A stretch of DNA of 6,452 nt, taken from the NCBI GenBank assembly GCA_021847625.1, contig JAJZQK010000206.1, positions 1 through 6,452 on the forward strand, written 5' to 3'. Below are positions 1 to 6,438 of this stretch, piece after piece. The notes below the pieces were generated by a model. That model did not search any database and was not told where the DNA came from. It saw only the letters and a list, made by a program, of their open reading frames with translations. The position numbers were made by a program, and so were the translations under genes. The DNA is from Chloroflexota bacterium. Lineage in GTDB: Bacteria > Chloroflexota > FW602-bin22 > JAMCYS01. Positions within the stretch are counted from its first letter, which is position 1, and every line of letters begins with the position of its first letter.

Positions 1-12
1 CCCCGCAGCCTT
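1..12. other. Left host flank
   Basis: Twelve bases of host DNA including the GCCTT duplication. Joined to the right flank with one GCCTT removed, this gives a 26-bp empty site. It is too short to assign to a gene. Confidence 0.85.
8..12. repeat. Left copy of 5-bp target-site duplication (GCCTT)
   Basis: GCCTT directly abuts the left terminal TGT and is repeated immediately after the right terminal ACA at 6434-6438. A 5-bp duplication is the hallmark of Tn7-like insertion. Confidence 0.93.
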
Positions 13-24
13 TGTAGGGTCTCA
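13..24 (+). repeat. Left terminal inverted repeat
   Basis: TGTAGGGTCTCA, identical over 12 bp to the reverse complement of 6422-6433. The outermost TGTAGG precedes the first 19-bp binding site by exactly 6 bp, the same offset as at the right end. TGT is the expected Tn7-family terminal trinucleotide. Confidence 0.95.
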
Positions 25-79
25 CAGTTGTTGAGCCAGTCTCACGGACAGTGAGCCTGCGTCTCACAGTTCGTGAGAC
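19..79 (+). repeat. Left-end array of three 19-bp putative TnsB binding sites
   Basis: Three 19-mers lie at 19-37, 39-57 and 61-79, with gaps of 1 and 3 bp. All share the outer half GTCTCA. The inner halves are TGAGCC, TGAGCC and TGAGAC, giving the palindromic plan GTCTCA-N7-TGAGAC, which is perfect at 61-79. Spacers are CAGTTGT, CGGACAG and CAGTTCG. Tn7 has three TnsB sites in its left end, which supports the same role here. The second and third sites overlap the 3' end of tniQ, whose stop is at 44-42. TnsB binding is inferred from position and repetition, not shown. Confidence 0.88.
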
Positions 80-2282
80 TGGCCAACATGGGGAGACTCT
101 TGGTGATGTGATGCCGTGTCGGCTCTCTGGCCGATCCGCCCTCCTGCAGCTGGTCTTGCCGCAGTCGCTCGATCTCCTGGCGAGAGAACCACCGCTGTTT
201 GCCGCCCATGTCCGCCAGTGGCGCAATCTTCCCTCTGTAGGCCAAACCGGCCAGCGTCGATCTCGTCACGCCAAGCAATGCGGCCGCTTCGCCGAAGGTC
301 AGCTGGTCAGTGCGCCACTGCACCAGGTAGGAGCGGTTGAAGAGGTAGCTGTGCGAGTCGTCGACCCCGGGACCGCTCACGGCGTGGAGCCGCCCGCGGC
401 GCGTCCACTTCTGGACGACAATCCGCCCGACGCCCAGCAGTGCCGCTGCCTCCCCGCTCGTGACATGGTCACGCCCAAAGGCGTCAACCATGGCTCGGTC
501 AAAGAAGTGGGCGTGCCCGCTGACAGGCACGGGTGTGAGCAACCCACGCTCCACAAGCCGCTGCAAGGCATCTCCAGTGATCCCGAGGCGGTGCGCTGCC
601 TCGAGGCGGTCGAGCCAACTGTTCTCGGCTTTGACCATGGCGGCGTGCGCCGCCACGTCGGTCCGGGTGAAGAGCAGGTCACCCAATCGCACGGGGGTGG
701 TTGCCGGATGGTAGGCCGGCAGTTTGCCGTCGGCCACCCGCGCCAGCAGCGCGGCGGCGTTGAGTCCCAGCACGTACAGGATCCGCGCTGCCCCGGCGAG
801 AGTCACGTAACCGCCCACTCCGACGGGTGAGGGTATCGCCCGCCCATCGGCCGGGGCTCCAGGGGGCAGGGGGATGACCCGCGCGGCCACCCGCGCGTGG
901 CAGGCGGTGATTGCCGCGCGGGTGAAGCGCCACCTCGGCGCCTCCTCGGCGAGTTGATGCGGGGGCGGCAGAAAGCCGCAGGCGATGAGGTCGGTCACGA
1001 CCCAGTAGGAGACGCCCAGCAGATCCGAGGCTTCGGTCAGCTTGAGCTGGTCGTGCCAGGCCTCACGCAAGGCGAGCACCTCCGTCCTGCTGAGCAGGAT
1101 GGGCGGCCCCGGACGCCCCGCGGCCAGTGCCTCGTACCCGGTCAGATGGCCGCTTCGGAGCAGGCGACCCAGCATCACCTGCCTGGTGCCGATGATGCGC
1201 GCAGCCTGGGTGAGGTTGAGGAAGGGCAGACGCGCAGCCAGGTCGCTGTCACGATGGCAGCGGCCCAACTGGCTCATCGAATGCACACGACCGTACCGGT
1301 CGAGTAGATACTGGTCGAAGGCCTCCTGCAAAAAGTCGAAGGCCTCGTGCCGCCAGCGCCGCCCGACCCAGGCGCTGTAGAAAGTGCCCAGCTTGGGCGC
1401 GAGGCCACCGCTGTTCTGCCCGCCGTCCCCCGCGTCCCGAGCCGTGTAGGCGTCCAGGAACTCGTGGAAGCCGCGTGGCCAGTGGAGCAACGCCTTGAGT
1501 GCGGTCGCGTACACAGAGTAACTCTGTGCTGGAGTAAGAAAGAACCCCGGTGCCACATCCTCCGCCCCTCGCGGCGAGCGATGCAGATACGGCCAGGACG
1601 CTCCGGCGCCCTGCACCAACAGGCGCAGCCCGTCGACGATGCGGTACGCCACCTTGGCCGGAAGGTCCGGCAAGGGGAAGGCCGAGTCTCGTGGAAGAGG
1701 CTCACTCAGCAGCCAGGACTGCATCACCTGTTGCGCGAACAGCCCGAGCGCATCCCCCTCGACCGACACGCTGGAACAGGTGGTCAGGTCGGCGCCACAG
1801 GCGCGACAGGTCGTGGCGACAATGTCGCGCACCGTCGGCGGCGCCCCACACCTCCCACAGCGATGGACGAGCAAGGACCGGTGACGCAGGCAGGCCGACA
1901 CGGCCACGGGGACCCAGAGGAGTCGATGATAGGCCGCTTCCGCCAGGCAGCGTGGGCAGAAGGCCCCGCGGGATTCCGCACGCAGCCGCTTCTGTAGCGA
2001 CCCGGTATCCAGCAAGGGCAAGGTGACACCGCCGGGCAAGGCAAGCTCCACGGCAGTTCTGCCCGGTGCCATGAGCGTCGGGGCGAAACGGTGGATCGTC
2101 GCCGCCCATAGGTCGGTGGCGGTGACACCGGTCAGCGTCTCCAGGCGTCGGTACGTCTCGGGATTTGTCGCGTAGCCCGGACGATCGCCAAGACGGTCGG
2201 GCGCCCGCTGACTGCCCAGCAGGAGACTCATCAAGAGGCCGGGTTGCCGGTCGTACCCGTTGGCCTCCTGCAGTCGTGCCAA
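42..2282 (-). CDS. tniQ: TniQ/TnsD-like target selector with about six tandem HTH units
   Basis: This is the likely target-site recognition protein, bridging a specific DNA site to TnsC. From the TTG at 2282 it is 746 aa. The TniQ domain covers ~1-170 and has zinc-binding pairs C109/C112, C131/H134, C142/C145 and C159/C162. A helical TnsD-like middle follows (~175-345). Residues ~355-708 contain about six repeated excisionase/MerR-like (HTH_17) winged-helix units, beginning near 355, 413, 493, 556, 607 and 661. The last two both contain GEAAALLGV. The start is uncertain. The family-conserved motif GESLPSWLARL begins upstream, at 2303, and LLLRRPPLED precedes it, yet no ATG, GTG or TTG lies in frame before the tnsC UGA. 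CTG at 2330 is the best rare alternative. The TTG would discard part of the conserved motif and has no ribosome binding site. The last codons lie within the left-end TnsB sites. Confidence 0.92.
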   Translation of the reverse strand: MARLQEANGYDRQPGLLMSLLLGSQRAPDRLGDRPGYATNPETYRRLETLTGVTATDLWAATIHRFAPTLMAPGRTAVELALPGGVTLPLLDTGSLQKRLRAESRGAFCPRCLAEAAYHRLLWVPVAVSACLRHRSLLVHRCGRCGAPPTVRDIVATTCRACGADLTTCSSVSVEGDALGLFAQQVMQSWLLSEPLPRDSAFPLPDLPAKVAYRIVDGLRLLVQGAGASWPYLHRSPRGAEDVAPGFFLTPAQSYSVYATALKALLHWPRGFHEFLDAYTARDAGDGGQNSGGLAPKLGTFYSAWVGRRWRHEAFDFLQEAFDQYLLDRYGRVHSMSQLGRCHRDSDLAARLPFLNLTQAARIIGTRQVMLGRLLRSGHLTGYEALAAGRPGPPILLSRTEVLALREAWHDQLKLTEASDLLGVSYWVVTDLIACGFLPPPHQLAEEAPRWRFTRAAITACHARVAARVIPLPPGAPADGRAIPSPVGVGGYVTLAGAARILYVLGLNAAALLARVADGKLPAYHPATTPVRLGDLLFTRTDVAAHAAMVKAENSWLDRLEAAHRLGITGDALQRLVERGLLTPVPVSGHAHFFDRAMVDAFGRDHVTSGEAAALLGVGRIVVQKWTRRGRLHAVSGPGVDDSHSYLFNRSYLVQWRTDQLTFGEAAALLGVTRSTLAGLAYRGKIAPLADMGGKQRWFSRQEIERLRQDQLQEGGSAREPTRHHITKSLPMLASLTNCETQAHCP

Positions 2283-2405
2283 CCAGGAGGGCAGCGACTC
2301 GCCATCCTCGAGTGGCGGTCTTCGGAGCAGGAGGCCGGGCCCGACCGGCCTGTCGGGATGTACCTCGGCCGGAGCGCGGGAGACCGGGCGGGCCTTGTCT
2401 GCCCC
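2283..2405 (-). other. tnsC-tniQ junction: open coding extension without a usual start codon
   Basis: These 123 bp form 41 codons in the same frame as both tnsC (stop UGA at 2408-2406) and tniQ, without another stop. About 80% of codons end in G or C, which looks like coding sequence. The translation ends LLLRRPPLEDGESLPSW, the expected start of a TniQ domain, so at least 2283-2333 is probably translated. How translation begins is unresolved. Options are a CTG start at 2330, readthrough of the UGA to make a TnsC-TniQ fusion, a frameshift, or a start codon lost by mutation or sequencing error. Confidence 0.6.
2332..2351 (-). promoter_or_regulatory. GC-rich hairpin at the tnsC-tniQ junction
   Basis: A perfect 7-bp stem, AGGCCGG / CCGGCCT, encloses a 6-base loop. 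On the mRNA it ends one base before the in-frame CTG at 2330 and lies ~55 nt after the tnsC UGA. It could modulate tniQ translation or a recoding event. In sequence this rich in GC it could also arise by chance. Confidence 0.35.
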
Positions 2406-3437
2406 TCAGTCGGGAGCACTCGCTCGACGGCGTGACCGCCTGGGATTGGTCCCAGCCGGGTCCGGCGCTCTTCTGGCAGCAACGGCCGTGGGCGAGAGCA
2501 CGCCGGCTGGCTCATCCCGACCGGGCACCTGCGGCGCCAGGAAGGGGTTGCCTCGGGGCGCCAGGTGCTTGGCCAGCCGCTTCTCGAAGGCGCACCACAG
2601 GTCGTCCAACTCGACGACGGCGGCGCCACGGTCCAGGGCCAGCAGTTGGGCGTAGCGCAGGAGGTTCATGACGTTGGCGACGACGCCACCGGTGGCCTGG
2701 TAGATCAGGCCGAGCAGCGACGCCCGGCTGATCTGGGCGCTGAGCGGCAGGCCGATGGCCTGCTCCGCCATCAGCACGAACCGGCCGAATTGCGCCACCG
2801 AGTCCGCGTCGGCAGTGTCCCAGGTGAACGGCGCCAGCGTTTCCCGGGCCGCGAACAGCCGCGACAGCTGGTCGTTGGCGCGCAGGATCCGCTCCACCTT
2901 GCCCTCGATTCCCACGACCAGGAAGGGCACGCCCGAGTTCTTGATCAGCACCTTCAGCCAGTCGGAGACCAGCGCCAGGATCTGGTCCCTCTCCCGGTCG
3001 ATGACATGGTGGAAGTCGTCGAGGATCACCAGTTCCACCTGGCAGGCGCCGAGCAGCTTGACCAGGCGTGCGTTCATGGCATCGAAGGTCCCCCGGTCGG
3101 CGGCCGGGTCGCCCAGCCGTTCCAGCATCGCGGAGGCCGCCCACTTGGGCCGGATCGGCGAGGGCGTCTCCACGTAGAGGACCGGGATCCGGCTCCCCGT
3201 CGCGGTCTCAATCCGGGGGAACGCCGCGGCGTAGCGCCTGACCAGGGTCGTCTTGCCCGTCCCGGTCGCGCCTTCCAGCGCCATGCACTGGGGTTCCTCG
3301 GCGAGATGCGAGAGTTGCTGACAGCGGGCGATCTCCCGGTGGAGGGCCTCCAGGCGTGGGTAGCTGATGAACGCCCCCTGGGCTCGCGCGATGGCGCTCG
3401 CCCCGTCGCCACCAACCATCTGCTTTGTCTCGATCAT
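2406..3437 (-). CDS. tnsC: TnsC/TniB-like AAA+ ATPase, transposition regulator
   Basis: TnsC is the ATP-dependent switch that assembles on target DNA and connects the target selector (TniQ) to TnsA/TnsB. The product is 343 aa. Walker A is GATGTGKTT (residues 56-64), Walker B is VELVILDDFHH (134-144), sensor 1 lies in PFLVVGIEG (171-179), and a likely arginine finger is in NDQLSRLFAAR (~R193). The size is nearer Tn5053 TniB than Tn7 TnsC (555 aa). GGGAGG ends 7 nt before the ATG at 3437, which overlaps the tnsB stop by 4 bp. The last ~38 residues (306-343) are rich in Pro, Ala and Arg and look like a flexible basic tail. The UGA stop at 2408-2406 is in the same frame as tniQ, with no further stop in between. 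Confidence 0.95.
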   Translation of the reverse strand: MIETKQMVGGDGASAIARAQGAFISYPRLEALHREIARCQQLSHLAEEPQCMALEGATGTGKTTLVRRYAAAFPRIETATGSRIPVLYVETPSPIRPKWAASAMLERLGDPAADRGTFDAMNARLVKLLGACQVELVILDDFHHVIDRERDQILALVSDWLKVLIKNSGVPFLVVGIEGKVERILRANDQLSRLFAARETLAPFTWDTADADSVAQFGRFVLMAEQAIGLPLSAQISRASLLGLIYQATGGVVANVMNLLRYAQLLALDRGAAVVELDDLWCAFEKRLAKHLAPRGNPFLAPQVPGRDEPAGVLSPTAVAARRAPDPAGTNPRRSRRRASAPD

Positions 3438-5509
3438 GCTTCATCCTCCCTGTGGCGAGGCTGCGGTCGCCGGCCACGCCGCTGCTCAAGCGACGTGAAA
3501 CTGAGCTGCCAACCAGGGGCCTCCGGGGTCAGGGAGGCCAGCAGCGCCTCCAGGGCCTCGTCCGGCACGCCGGTAGTCGGTTCCGGAGGAGCGACCTTCC
3601 CGCCCGGCGTCCCCGCCGGCCCGAGGTCGCGGAAGGGCGCGCCCCCGGTCGTCCAGCGCGCCGCGCGCGCATTGGTCCGCTTCCTCTCTCGCGCCTGCTC
3701 GACGATCTGTCCCATCGCCTGCTTGGCTCGACCCAGCCCCGCCAGGTCCACCCGGCCTTGCTCAGCCAAGGCCCTCTCCCGAATCAAGCGGTGTTTCCAC
3801 AGCGACAGGCCCCGAGTGTAGTCCGGCGCCAGGGCGGGCACCTCCAGATAGCGTCCGGCGAACTGGTCGAAGACGTGGATCCGGCTCAGATCGCCCGGAT
3901 GGTACTTCACCTTGACCTTCTCCCCGCGTTTCAGTCGGTCCCGGAGCGCGGACAACTCGTCACCGTTGTACCTGAGCGTCTCGAACTCGATGCCGTAGGG
4001 CTGCACCGTGCGTGTGGTTACCCGACCGAGCAGCACCTTCAGATCCTCAGCGCTGCCGGGCACGTAGGGCGTGAAGGCAAAGGGGTCCACGGTCAGCCTC
4101 GCCCACCGCCGCGCCGGGCTATCTCCCCCAAGCCCGGCATGGCGGTCCACCGCGTAGCGGTCGACGATGAAGAGGTGCAGCAGGCGGTCCAGGTCGCGCA
4201 TCGACAGGCAGGCCTGCTCGACGCTGTCGTAGTCGCCCCGGGCTCGGGGATTGGCGAAGGTCGTCCCGGGAAGGGTGGTGAACAGCCCGGTGTCCAGGGT
4301 GGCGAACGATCGCTCGATGCTACCCTTGAACTCGGGGGTTCTGATGGGAGCCTGCTGCAGGGTGATGCCCAGGGCCAAACAGGCGTCGCGCAGGTCGCTG
4401 CCCGTGAACTCCCAGCCGTTGTCGGTGACCAGCACAGCGGGAACGCCGTAGGCCAGCCAGTCGTGGGCGCAGCCGTACCGCTCCCGGCTGCCCTCCTTCG
4501 GACGGATGGCGTGGTAAAGGCACTCCATCACGGCGTAGTAGCTGAAGGGTTCGAAGCCGAGGTAGTAGCCGAGCGGGTAGCGCGTGGCGACGTCAAGGCA
4601 GTAGGTCAGGACCGGCCGCCCGAGCGGTAAATTGTCGTACTCGTCGATGACGATGACCGGAATGCGAGTGTGGTCGATCTCGACCCGAGAGAGCGGCCGG
4701 CGCGGTTCCTCGGCCTCGCCCCACTGGGCGAAGTGGCGCCGCGCCGCCCACCGTCCGTGCTTGGCGGTGAAGGTCGTCCGGGCGTCCAGCGCCGCGACCC
4801 GGCGGGCGACCGTTGCCCGGGAAGGGGTGGTGAGCTGCTCCGCCGGGGATCGAGCGACATTCTCCTCGGCCACCCGGCGCGCGACCTCGTGGTGAAGGTC
4901 GTCGATGGTCACCCGCTCGCGCCGAAGGTACTGGTCGTTGATGACCGCGTCGACCAGATCATCGACGTTGGCCAATCGGGGGCGAGCCTTCCCCCCGCGC
5001 CGGCCCGTAGCGGGGATCAGGGCGCGGAGGTCGTTGCCGAAGGCCTTGTACCGTGCCCGCCACCGGTAGACGGAGGAGACGCTGAGCGCCATCTGCAGAT
5101 TCCGGGTGGCTGCAGGACCGGCGGCCGACTCGGTTCGTACGGTGCGCATGCGCTCCTCGACGAGCTCTCGCGGCCACGCTCGGGAGTATTGGTCCAGCAG
5201 CGGCTGCAGCACGGCCAGGCGGTATTCGGCGATGGCCCGTAGTGGTGCCGGGTAGTCATCCCAGGGCAGGAAAGCCCCCACCGTGCCTTCGTCGTCCCCC
5301 GACAGGGGCTGCCGATGCCGGACTGCAGGCATGAAGGTCAGGCCGCCGTCGAAGAGAGCCTGCCGGAGCACCTGCTCGACAACGGTCTGCTCGACCCCCG
5401 TGGAAAGGTCCGTGATCTCGACCGTGTCGTTCGGCAGACAGCGGTTGATGGCGTACGCACTGCCCTGCCAGGTGAACCTGGCTCCGGTGACGAAGCGATA
5501 GCTACCCAT
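3434..5509 (-). CDS. tnsB: TnsB-like DDE transposase
   Basis: TnsB binds the end repeats, cuts the 3' ends of the element and joins them to target DNA. The product is 691 aa from the ATG at 5509, close to Tn7 TnsB (702 aa). The N-terminal ~240 residues hold the DNA-binding part, including a helix-turn-helix around LSVSSVYRWRARYKAFG (~142-158). The RNase H-fold catalytic core shows all three acidic residues: D279 in VEIDHTRI, D363 in LVTDNGWEF and E399 in KGSIERSF, a DD(35)E arrangement. A beta-barrel-like region follows (~500-560). The C-terminal tail (~570-691) is charged and low in complexity; in this family it recruits TnsC. The start is set by a strong ribosome binding site and the 8-bp overlap with tnsA. 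The stop overlaps the tnsC start as ATGA. No inactivating change is seen. Confidence 0.96.
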   Translation of the reverse strand: MGSYRFVTGARFTWQGSAYAINRCLPNDTVEITDLSTGVEQTVVEQVLRQALFDGGLTFMPAVRHRQPLSGDDEGTVGAFLPWDDYPAPLRAIAEYRLAVLQPLLDQYSRAWPRELVEERMRTVRTESAAGPAATRNLQMALSVSSVYRWRARYKAFGNDLRALIPATGRRGGKARPRLANVDDLVDAVINDQYLRRERVTIDDLHHEVARRVAEENVARSPAEQLTTPSRATVARRVAALDARTTFTAKHGRWAARRHFAQWGEAEEPRRPLSRVEIDHTRIPVIVIDEYDNLPLGRPVLTYCLDVATRYPLGYYLGFEPFSYYAVMECLYHAIRPKEGSRERYGCAHDWLAYGVPAVLVTDNGWEFTGSDLRDACLALGITLQQAPIRTPEFKGSIERSFATLDTGLFTTLPGTTFANPRARGDYDSVEQACLSMRDLDRLLHLFIVDRYAVDRHAGLGGDSPARRWARLTVDPFAFTPYVPGSAEDLKVLLGRVTTRTVQPYGIEFETLRYNGDELSALRDRLKRGEKVKVKYHPGDLSRIHVFDQFAGRYLEVPALAPDYTRGLSLWKHRLIRERALAEQGRVDLAGLGRAKQAMGQIVEQARERKRTNARAARWTTGGAPFRDLGPAGTPGGKVAPPEPTTGVPDEALEALLASLTPEAPGWQLSFTSLEQRRGRRPQPRHREDEA

Positions 5510-6173
5510 GGCGTCCCCTTCCTTCTGCATGCGGGCGCTGGTGCACCGGCAGCCAGACCGCCGTCTGACGCGAAACCTTGGCGTCGTCCAGGGGGATGAT
5601 GATCTCGTGGTGGTAGGCGAGGTGGAGGATGACCGGAAAGGGCGAGGCCGCAGGCTTGTCACGAGCCAACGCCTCGGCCAACCCGCCGAGCGTCGTCGGG
5701 CCTATGGCCGCGGCCAGGGTGGCCAGTACCTGGGCGCGGGCCTCGGGGGCGACCGGGCGGCGCGCGAACTGAGTCAGGAACTTCACGTTCTCCAGACGGA
5801 AGCCACCCCTGATCTCCCGCTCCGTCATGACCCGGAACTGGTAGCCGTGGGCCGGGCACCACGCCTCGGCGGCGGCGAACTTTCGGCGGTTGTCCTCGCT
5901 GTCCACCAGTGCCAGCGGCTTGCACTCCACCAGCAGATCCTGCCCGGCTTGCCGGACATGGAAATCGGGGGTGTAGCGATGGGTCTTCCCTTCGTGGGTG
6001 TAGGGGATGGTCAGAGGCTGTTCTTCGAAGGCGGCGACGTCCTCCTCGAAGTCCAGCAGCCAGAGGTAGTCGCACTCCAGCAGGCTCTCGTAGGCCACGC
6101 TCCTACGCATCCTGTAGGAGGCAAACCAGCCGATGGTGTTCCCGCCACGGTTGGACGGCCGACGGACCGGCAT
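5502..6173 (-). CDS. tnsA: TnsA-like transposon endonuclease
   Basis: TnsA is the restriction-enzyme-like half of the Tn7 transposase. It nicks the 5' ends of the transposon while TnsB cuts the 3' ends, so the element is excised completely. The product is 223 aa from the ATG at 6173, slightly shorter than Tn7 TnsA (273 aa). It opens with MPVRRPSNRGGN, a typical TnsA N-terminus. The expected active-site set is present: E29 in YESLLE, D70 in RYTPDF, and E83-x-K85 in LLVECK, i.e. a PD-(D/E)xK nuclease core. The C-terminal part (~residues 110-200) fits the TnsA domain that contacts TnsC. A GTG at 6233 would add 20 residues but lacks a ribosome binding site. The stop overlaps the tnsB start by 8 bp (ATGGGTAG), which implies coupled translation and matched amounts of the two subunits. 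Confidence 0.93.
   Translation of the reverse strand: MPVRRPSNRGGNTIGWFASYRMRRSVAYESLLECDYLWLLDFEEDVAAFEEQPLTIPYTHEGKTHRYTPDFHVRQAGQDLLVECKPLALVDSEDNRRKFAAAEAWCPAHGYQFRVMTEREIRGGFRLENVKFLTQFARRPVAPEARAQVLATLAAAIGPTTLGGLAEALARDKPAASPFPVILHLAYHHEIIIPLDDAKVSRQTAVWLPVHQRPHAEGRGRHG
5515..5524 (-). promoter_or_regulatory. Ribosome binding site deciding the tnsB start
   Basis: The purine run AAGGAAGGGG ends 5 nt before the ATG at 5509-5507. The ATG at 5530 and the open frame up to 5662 lack such a site, and that stretch is an out-of-frame shadow of tnsA. Confidence 0.7.
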
Positions 6174-6178
6174 GGCTA

Positions 6179-6184
6179 CCTCGC
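6179..6184 (-). promoter_or_regulatory. Ribosome binding site deciding the tnsA start
   Basis: GCGAGG lies 5 nt before the ATG at 6173-6171. The longer option, GTG at 6233-6231, has no purine-rich sequence upstream, and its extra 20 residues precede the family-typical N-terminus. This supports the ATG. Confidence 0.6.
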
Positions 6185-6245
6185 TTGCTGGACTGGCCAC
6201 CAGCGATGAAACCGGGCGTGGTACAATGGCCACCAGACAGTGATG

Positions 6246-6270
6246 TTGCCACCGTCACAGCGGTGGGCAA
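6246..6270 (-). promoter_or_regulatory. Hairpin in the tnsA leader
   Basis: An inverted repeat, TTGCCACCG - TCACAG - CGGTGGGCAA on the plus strand, gives a 9-bp stem with one bulged base and a 6-base loop. It lies between the predicted transcription start (~6285) and the tnsA start (6173), so the operon mRNA leader should carry it. It could be an RNA structure limiting transposase expression or a DNA operator. No U-tract follows, so it is not a simple terminator. Confidence 0.45.
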
Positions 6271-6291
6271 GCGCCGTCTGCCTATGGGGCC

Positions 6292-6320
6292 ACTGTAGGG
6301 TGAGATGGGGCTGGTGTCAA
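6292..6320 (-). promoter_or_regulatory. Sigma70-like promoter for the tns operon
   Basis: Read on the minus strand, a perfect -35 box TTGACA (6320-6315) is followed by a 17-bp spacer and a -10-like TACAGT (6297-6292, four of six matches to TATAAT). It points at tnsA and would start transcription near 6285. The -35 lies wholly inside the innermost 19-bp repeat (6314-6332), so transposase bound there should compete with RNA polymerase. The boxes and spacing are seen directly. Promoter activity and autoregulation are inferred. Confidence 0.65.
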
Positions 6321-6427
6321 TAACTGTGAGACAAGGACACGCAAACGCAGTGAAGCCGAGACGCAGGCGCACTATCCCTGAGACAAACAGGGCCGTCCGC
6401 ACCTCGCAGTCTCATTATCTTTGAGAC
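6314..6427 (-). repeat. Right-end array of four 19-bp putative TnsB binding sites
   Basis: Four 19-mers lie at 6409-6427, 6366-6384, 6344-6362 and 6314-6332, separated by 24, 3 and 11 bp. The terminus-facing half is TGAGAC in three and CGAGAC in one. The inward-facing halves drift: GTCTCA, GGCGCA, AACGCA and GTGTCA. The outer half therefore seems to be the constrained recognition element, and the same outer half (as GTCTCA) is invariant on the left. Four sites here against three on the left mirrors Tn7, although Tn7 packs its right end more tightly. The innermost site covers the -35 box of the operon promoter. Confidence 0.87.
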
Positions 6428-6433
6428 CCTACA
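6422..6433 (-). repeat. Right terminal inverted repeat
   Basis: TGAGACCCTACA, the exact complement of the left terminus. It overlaps the outermost 19-bp repeat of the right end (6409-6427) and ends in ACA next to the target duplication. Confidence 0.95.
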
Positions 6434-6438
6434 GCCTT
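6434..6438. repeat. Right copy of 5-bp target-site duplication (GCCTT)
   Basis: Identical and in direct orientation to positions 8-12, immediately outside the right terminal inverted repeat. A perfect match argues that both ends belong to a single insertion event. Confidence 0.93.

What the first reader, a model, noticed from the sequence alone, without database searches (positions are those of the whole stretch)
42..2303. TniQ target selector with a tandem array of about six helix-turn-helix modules
The sequence shows a TniQ/zinc-finger head followed by repeated units of ~50-80 residues with the excisionase/MerR-like pattern: 'EAA-LLGV' helix, recognition helix, 'RG-L' turn, then a hydrophobic wing strand and short helix. 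Units begin near residues 355 (LTQAARIIGTRQ), 413 (LTEASDLLGVSY), 493 (LAGAARILYVLG), 556 (LEAAHRLGITGD), 607 (SGEAAALLGVGR) and 661 (FGEAAALLGVTR). Tn7 TnsD reads attTn7 through its C-terminal DNA-binding region. A six-module array could read a long, specific target as a modular protein code, without guide RNA. I do not know of a described subfamily with this architecture, but I could not search.
Basis: partly seen in the sequence, partly recalled or inferred. Interest (0 to 1): 0.85.

Follow-up and report, generated by a model that had tools for sequence, protein, structure and literature searches.

The report
Transposon target-finder with six DNA-binding repeats
This small, complete Tn7-like transposon carries a target-choosing protein whose tail is a row of six similar DNA-gripping units, an unusually long version of a known design; where it inserts, and whether the row works as a readable code, is still unknown.

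Summary
The window is a complete, cargo-free Tn7-like transposon (13-6433) with 12/12 terminal inverted repeats, a 5-bp target duplication GCCTT, and only tnsA, tnsB, tnsC and tniQ recognised. TniQ (minus strand, stop at 42) has a TniQ/zinc-finger head and six tandem winged helix-turn-helix units at residues 361-722 (HTH_17 E 6.5e-26; profile-profile comparison; two AlphaFold2 models). Five units match each other clearly. Unit 3 is divergent and rests mainly on the models and a match to unit 2. The units resemble excisionase, BldC and MerR domains. Eleven further database proteins (taxa not given) align along the whole array. Azospirillum and Pseudomonas plasmid elements carry a shorter, roughly five-unit version; one Azospirillum element sits directly behind the gyrB stop codon.

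Best reading: a TnsD-type selector that binds a long attachment site and hands it to TnsC. Multi-HTH TnsD tails are already in print, so this is a new variant of a known kind. The "modular protein code" idea is untested: the flanks are 12 and 19 bp and no relative's insertion site from this subfamily could be fetched. It is weakened because BldC/MerR domains make few base-specific contacts.

The parts
13..6433 (.). complete cargo-free Tn7-like element (6421 bp)
   Evidence: 12/12 inverted repeat plus 5-bp direct repeat; 0 of 300 shuffles of the two end regions gave a 5-bp repeat with 10 of 12 or better; about 95% coding counted from 2303
8..12 (.). target-site duplication GCCTT, left copy
6434..6438 (.). 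target-site duplication GCCTT, right copy
13..24 (+). terminal inverted repeat TGTAGGGTCTCA, left
6422..6433 (-). terminal inverted repeat, right
19..77 (+). three left-end repeats GTCTCACAGTT-like (19-35, 39-55, 61-77), presumed TnsB sites
   Evidence: TnsB role inferred
6327..6427 (-). right-end GTCTCA repeats starting at 6427, 6384 and 6332, presumed TnsB sites
   Evidence: role inferred
42..2282 (-). tniQ, target selector; first standard start TTG 2282, conserved head continues upstream in frame to about 2333
1869..2303 (-). TniQ domain PF06527; the conserved cysteines are residues 116, 119, 138, 149, 152, 166, 169 (the last four just beyond the domain match)
1053..1223 (-). winged-HTH unit 1 (residues 361-417)
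885..1049 (-). winged-HTH unit 2 (residues 419-473), most conserved recognition helix
624..809 (-). winged-HTH unit 3 (residues 499-560), divergent, after a variable linker
468..617 (-). winged-HTH unit 4 (residues 563-612)
306..467 (-). winged-HTH unit 5 (residues 613-666)
138..305 (-). winged-HTH unit 6 (residues 667-722)
2406..3437 (-). tnsC/tniB AAA+ ATPase; Walker A GATGTGKT and Walker B LVILDD present
   Evidence: TniB E 1.9e-24; motifs
3434..5509 (-). tnsB DDE transposase; DDE-type motif stretches present
   Evidence: Mu-transpos_C E 1.2e-11; motifs
5502..6233 (-). tnsA endonuclease
   Evidence: Tn7_TnsA-like_N E 1e-16; NCBIfam TnsA-like 107 bits, just under its 110 cut-off

Best explanation
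A TnsD-type target selector of a minimal cut-and-paste Tn7-like transposon. Inferred steps: the six linked winged-HTH units lie along the target DNA head to tail. At about 9 bp per unit, the repeat size of BldC, that would cover roughly 50-55 bp. They bend or distort the DNA. The N-terminal TniQ/zinc-finger domain then loads TnsC beside this complex, and TnsC brings in TnsA+TnsB bound to the terminal repeats, giving insertion at a fixed distance with a 5-bp duplication. Shown here: the architecture, the complete element, no other targeting gene recognised in it, and one wider-family element lying directly behind a conserved gene (gyrB). Not shown: DNA binding, the site, the bp-per-unit figure and DNA distortion.
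Against: No insertion site of any other member of this subfamily was available, so site specificity is unproven. The head of the full-length model is low confidence. The Pseudomonas element with the shorter array lies in an intergenic hairpin on a conjugative plasmid, not behind an obviously conserved chromosomal gene. BldC/MerR-like domains contact few bases. Units are not strongly basic (K+R versus D+E: 7/3, 5/5, 6/4, 6/7, 7/4, 8/6).
Confidence: 0.7

Rival explanations
1. The array is a low-specificity architectural DNA binder: a tethered Xis/BldC-type filament that bends DNA and helps load TnsC at many permissive sites, so insertion is only loosely targeted.
For: Close folds include architectural or distorting proteins (Xis, RdfS, RacA, BldC). 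The BldC paper stresses few base contacts and strong distortion. The element is small and cargo-free like an insertion sequence. Recognition-helix positions drift in four of six units.
Against: Unit 2's recognition helix is nearly fixed in 10 of 11 sequences. The gyrB-adjacent relative argues for a defined site in the wider family.
Confidence: 0.2
2. The array mainly binds the transposon's own ends or the tnsA promoter, as an excisionase-like or repressor part, and target choice comes from elsewhere.
For: The units match excisionase and MerR regulators. A promoter-like site at 6320-6292 overlaps the innermost right-end repeat.
Against: The protein is a TniQ fusion, and TniQ/TnsD C-terminal extensions are the place of target DNA binding in known members (PMC11406308, passages). 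No other selector gene is recognised in the element.
Confidence: 0.05
3. The array is mainly a protein-protein platform for a host or separate targeting factor, as TniQ's second helical domain is for Cascade.
Against: No Cas, TnsE, TnsF-like or other partner gene recognised in the element. Faure et al. associate small TniQ without a large C-terminal extension with partner selectors (PMC10293859, section read).
Confidence: 0.05

Closest known systems
Tn7 TnsD (attTn7/glmS selector)
   Same: TniQ domain plus zinc finger, long C-terminal DNA-binding region, tnsA, tnsB, tnsC and selector set, 5-bp duplication
   Different: Here six recognisable excisionase/MerR-type units in tandem; target unknown; no cargo. 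A profile search of the PDB matched TnsD (8v32) only in profile positions 127-196, E 4e-4
TnsD-like proteins of I-B, I-D and I-F CASTs
   Different: Those serve alongside RNA-guided TniQ; here the only selector. Unit type and number were not compared directly
TniQ + HTH-array elements of Azospirillum (NZ_CP007794) and Pseudomonas (p716811-VIM, pXWY)
   Same: TnsA, TnsB and TniQ genes with a related array, and a TniB-type gene in the first two; p716811-VIM ends TGTAGGTTCACA resemble the window's TGTAGGGTCTCACA
   Different: About five units placed rather than six, several by weak matches; the two bounded elements are larger (about 18 and 27 kb); different insertion sites
BldC, phage and ICE Xis, RdfS, TraN of pIP501
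   Same: Same single-unit fold; BldC binds direct repeats head to tail (passages), and RdfS forms superhelical polymers in crystals (abstract start)
   Different: Separate small proteins (TraN aligned over about 117 columns, near two units, with rmsd above 10); here six units covalently linked to TniQ
Cyanobacterial Tn7-like elements (Nostoc pNPM2, Allocoleopsis pMIC7113.04)
   Same: Best listed TnsB matches on plasmids, about 35% identity, with TnsA, TnsB and TniB genes
   Different: Short TniQ, 264 and 397 aa by annotated span, too short for a six-unit array (not scanned), and a tyrosine recombinase gene on the tnsA side, directly beside it in Allocoleopsis

Membership tests
Tn7-like transposon | TnsB-type DDE transposase, TnsC-type AAA+ ATPase and TniQ | tested here: met
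   motif stretches
Tn7-like transposon | TnsA endonuclease for cut-and-paste | tested here: met
   PF08722 E 1e-16; NCBIfam TnsA-like at 107 of 110 bits
Tn7-like transposon | TGT...ACA ends with repeat arrays and 5-bp duplication | tested here: met
TniQ/TnsD family | TniQ domain with conserved cysteines | tested here: met
   PF06527 60.3 bits over cut-off 27; cysteines 116, 119, 138, 149, 152, 166, 169 invariant in 12 sequences
TnsD-type selector | C-terminal multi-HTH region | tested here: met
   six winged-HTH units by sequence and model; DNA binding itself not tested
TnsD-type selector | sequence-specific binding to a conserved attachment site at fixed distance | not testable with these tools
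   only 12 + 19 bp of flank; no relative of the subfamily fetched
MerR/excisionase-type winged HTH | HTH, wing and closing helix per unit, matching family profiles | tested here: met
   whole-protein HTH_17 90.8 bits; singly only units 5 and 6 pass the cut-off; unit 3 supported mainly by model and unit-2 match
CRISPR-associated transposon | Cas effector or CRISPR array in the element | tested here: not met
   about 95% of the element is the four transposition genes; no Cas hit among those four proteins
BldC family regulator | above the NF033787 cut-off | tested here: not met
   27.7 bits, cut-off 77

The most novel reading that the evidence does not exclude
The array is a covalently fixed excisionase/BldC-type filament in which unit number and recognition helices set the length and identity of a roughly 54-bp attachment site: a protein-coded, rearrangeable long-site reader that distorts DNA to load TnsC, with unit gain (five to six) and helix changes retargeting the transposon without guide RNA.
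Probability: 0.12. Interest if true: 0.8.

Novelty: new variant of a known kind. Interest (0 to 1): 0.45.

Why it matters
If the array binds one long site, it would be a compact four-protein, RNA-free integration system with a very regular target reader, and a natural test of whether winged-HTH units can be added or swapped to change a transposon's target. It would also link TnsD-type selection to head-to-tail Xis/BldC filaments, suggesting how a selector could both recognise and distort DNA for TnsC loading. If the array is unspecific, it would be an example of a DNA-bending selector.

Tried and rejected
Target identity: 21 bases of the empty site had no exact match in viral contigs. The terminal-repeat pattern gave 10 viral stretches, not followed up: my estimate, not computed, is that chance alone would give as many. 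A hairpin at the empty site is not better than shuffles (z -1.1 and -0.5), so I dropped that idea. Related loci: none confirmed in genome contigs or viral contigs, none in phages. On plasmids the window's TniQ hit 7 records, 3 over 72-73% of its length and 4 only over 20-25%. A longer TSD was considered (CAGCCTT on both sides), but only GCCTT is outside perfect 12-bp repeats. A CAST reading was rejected because the element has no room for Cas genes. A fold match to TnsD was not among the listed rows for either model, which excludes nothing. The top Foldseek E-value hits, ribosome/UFM1 ligase complexes, have TM-scores of 0.09-0.15 and were set aside as spurious. RdfS matches with rmsd 7.1 and was not leaned on. 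The Azospirillum duplication is imperfect: CAGGT abuts the left end and lies one base from the right end. An inverted pair TGTCAACATTG/CAATGTTGACA near that end was first taken for the element's end and then dropped.

Full report
What is there. The window is a nearly bare transposon. Perfect 12-bp inverted repeats TGTAGGGTCTCA start at 13 and end at 6433 and are flanked by GCCTT on both sides; 0 of 300 shuffles of the two end regions gave a 5-bp repeat with inverted repeats of 10 of 12 or better. Three GTCTCACAGTT-like repeats lie at the left end (19, 39, 61) and three GTCTCA repeats at the right end (6427, 6384, 6332 on the minus strand). Inside are four minus-strand genes: tnsA 5502-6233, tnsB 3434-5509, tnsC 2406-3437 and tniQ, which ends at 42. 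They fill about 95% of the element when tniQ is counted from 2303. The TnsA, TnsB (DDE-type) and TnsC (Walker A/B) motif stretches are present (which residues are catalytic is recalled); whether the proteins are active was not tested.

The TniQ protein. TniQ PF06527 matches residues 1-145 of the frame read from 2303 (E 4.3e-16), and HTH_17 matches the protein with E 6.5e-26 in five stretches. NCBIfam adds the excisionase domain TIGR01764 (62.2 bits, cut-off 28.8) and a sub-threshold BldC match (27.7, cut-off 77). The full-length AlphaFold2 model (mean pLDDT 62.9) is poor in the head but shows six helix-helix-wing-helix units at 361-722. The array alone gives mean pLDDT 82.4 and pTM 0.63. Both models rest on the same 12 sequences.

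Are the repeats more than chance? Profile-profile comparison links units 1, 2, 4, 5 and 6 in all 10 pairs (probability 90-98). Unit 3 links to unit 2 (93) but only weakly to the other four (1.5-21). All 24 unit-versus-core control pairs stayed at 4.5 or below; two control-control pairs are high only because those segments overlap. Against an HMM of units 5 and 6, 0 of 200 shuffles reached the scores of units 1, 2 and 4, and 1 of 200 reached that of unit 3 (shuffles given a score: 182, 170, 197 and 185). None of six head segments stood out. Scanned one at a time, units 5 and 6 pass HTH_17's cut-off, units 1, 2 and 4 score 14.5-17.1 bits (cut-off 27), and unit 3 has no HTH hit. The array is therefore strong for five units and model-dependent for unit 3.

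Relatives. A search of 5.8 billion proteins gave 14 hits, among them the window's own, and a profile search gave 15, 16 different proteins in all. In both, only the 7,993 candidates sharing most words were scored, so these are lower bounds. P0001-P0012 have TniQ and HTH_17 by precomputed Pfam, and P0002-P0012 align along the array. Of five proteins rescanned, four passed HTH_17 and P0014 did not. P0013, P0015 and P0016 are short or partial. The only taxon names given are Chloroflexi (P0013) and Anaerolineae (P0015); for P0001-P0012 no taxon is given, so a Chloroflexota home is a guess. On plasmids, an Azospirillum and two Pseudomonas elements carry TniQ proteins (644, 625 and 638 aa from the starts I chose) in which about five unit places can be seen. 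The matches are weak one by one: best probabilities 86.9 and 73.5 in Azospirillum, 59.3 in P. putida and 42.3 in pXWY, and the second Azospirillum unit reaches only 8 or less. The Azospirillum protein found four proteins including itself under the same kind of limit.

Insertion sites in the wider family. In A. argentinense Az39 the gyrB gene (TIGR01059, above cut-off) matches six other Azospirillum records only up to its end: the matches stop at query positions 417-426, and the stop codon ends at 419. The sequence that follows gyrB in strain MTCC4035 reappears in Az39 at about 23.08 kb. An element of about 18 kb (about 5043-23065) therefore starts within 10 bp of the gyrB stop, with TGTCGG ends and an imperfect CAGGT repeat. 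The P. putida element on p716811-VIM spans about 187.35-214.47 kb. Its ends read TGTAGGTTCACA, with duplication TGTCG, in an intergenic hairpin between a small gene (called membrane protein in the empty plasmid) and a helicase gene. These two sites differ, as expected for diverged selectors, and neither tests the window's own subfamily. parE-targeting TnsD proteins are in print (PMC11406308, passages). gyrB as a Tn7-like target was not found: a search for Tn7-like + gyrB + TniQ gave two papers, one checked by passages and unrelated, one not opened, and the word gyrB is absent from the main texts of PMC8649781 and PMC11406308.

Conservation inside the array. Across 11 sequences of the subfamily (P0012 left out) the array is as conserved as the head (mean entropy 0.87 versus 0.85). 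Presumed DNA-facing positions of the recognition helices average 1.27 and inner ones 0.78; the choice of positions is mine. Unit 2's helix is nearly fixed and unit 3's well conserved, while those of units 1, 4, 5 and 6 change between subgroups. That fits either partly changing targets or modest base reading.

Mechanism. Known TnsD binds 36 bp at the end of glmS and sends insertion about 20 bp downstream of the gene (PMC2918618, passages). BldC lies head to tail on direct repeats of about 9 bp and distorts DNA (PMC5859096, passages; 9 bp is my reading of four repeats on a 36-mer). RdfS makes superhelical polymers in crystals (search listing). I infer that six linked units would cover 50-55 bp and present a distorted site to TnsC. 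The same BldC text says such domains contact few bases, which argues against a simple unit-to-base code.

Verdict. Observation confirmed; interpretation partly supported; new variant of a known kind. Multi-HTH TnsD tails and TniQ fusions to DNA-binding domains are described (PMC10293859: abstract, passages, sections 10 and 11; PMC11406308: passages). A tandem excisionase/BldC-type array of six was not seen in the papers found, most of which I saw only as listings; supplements were not available.

Noticed in passing
2282-2408 (minus strand): tniQ lies in the same frame as tnsC after its TGA (2408-2406), and no ATG/GTG/TTG precedes the conserved head LLLRRPPLEDGESLPSWLARL; the only near-cognate start there among those scanned is CTG 2330. 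The called proteins of 7 of 12 (P0001, 2, 4, 5, 8, 9, 10; the first is the window's own) also lack all or part of this head. Non-standard start, stop read-through, contig ends or gene-calling artefact are all open.
   Followed up: partly
6292-6320 (minus strand): A promoter-like TTGACA-17-TACAGT upstream of tnsA (1 found, 0.1 expected in shuffles) overlaps the innermost right-end repeat, suggesting TnsB could repress its own operon.
   Followed up: no
42-77: The last codons of tniQ run through left-end repeats, so the protein's tail is encoded by presumed transposase binding sites; the stop is 29 bp from the element's tip.
   Followed up: no
L021 about 5043-23065: Azospirillum argentinense Tn7-like element of about 18 kb placed directly behind the gyrB stop codon.
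   Followed up: partly
L026 2452-6007 and L027 4044-5980: Cyanobacterial Tn7-like elements with short TniQ have a tyrosine recombinase gene, on the opposite strand, on the tnsA side; it may be a TnsF-like partner or a neighbour.
   Followed up: no
P0012, residues 795-874: One relative's TniQ array is followed by an HxlR-type HTH at its C-terminus; fusion or gene-calling join not checked.
   Followed up: no
L003 1768-7513: In the pXWY copy of the Pseudomonas element an IS3-type gene lies between the transposase gene and tniQ, where no TniB-type gene is annotated, and an IS21-type pair lies just outside tnsA.
   Followed up: no
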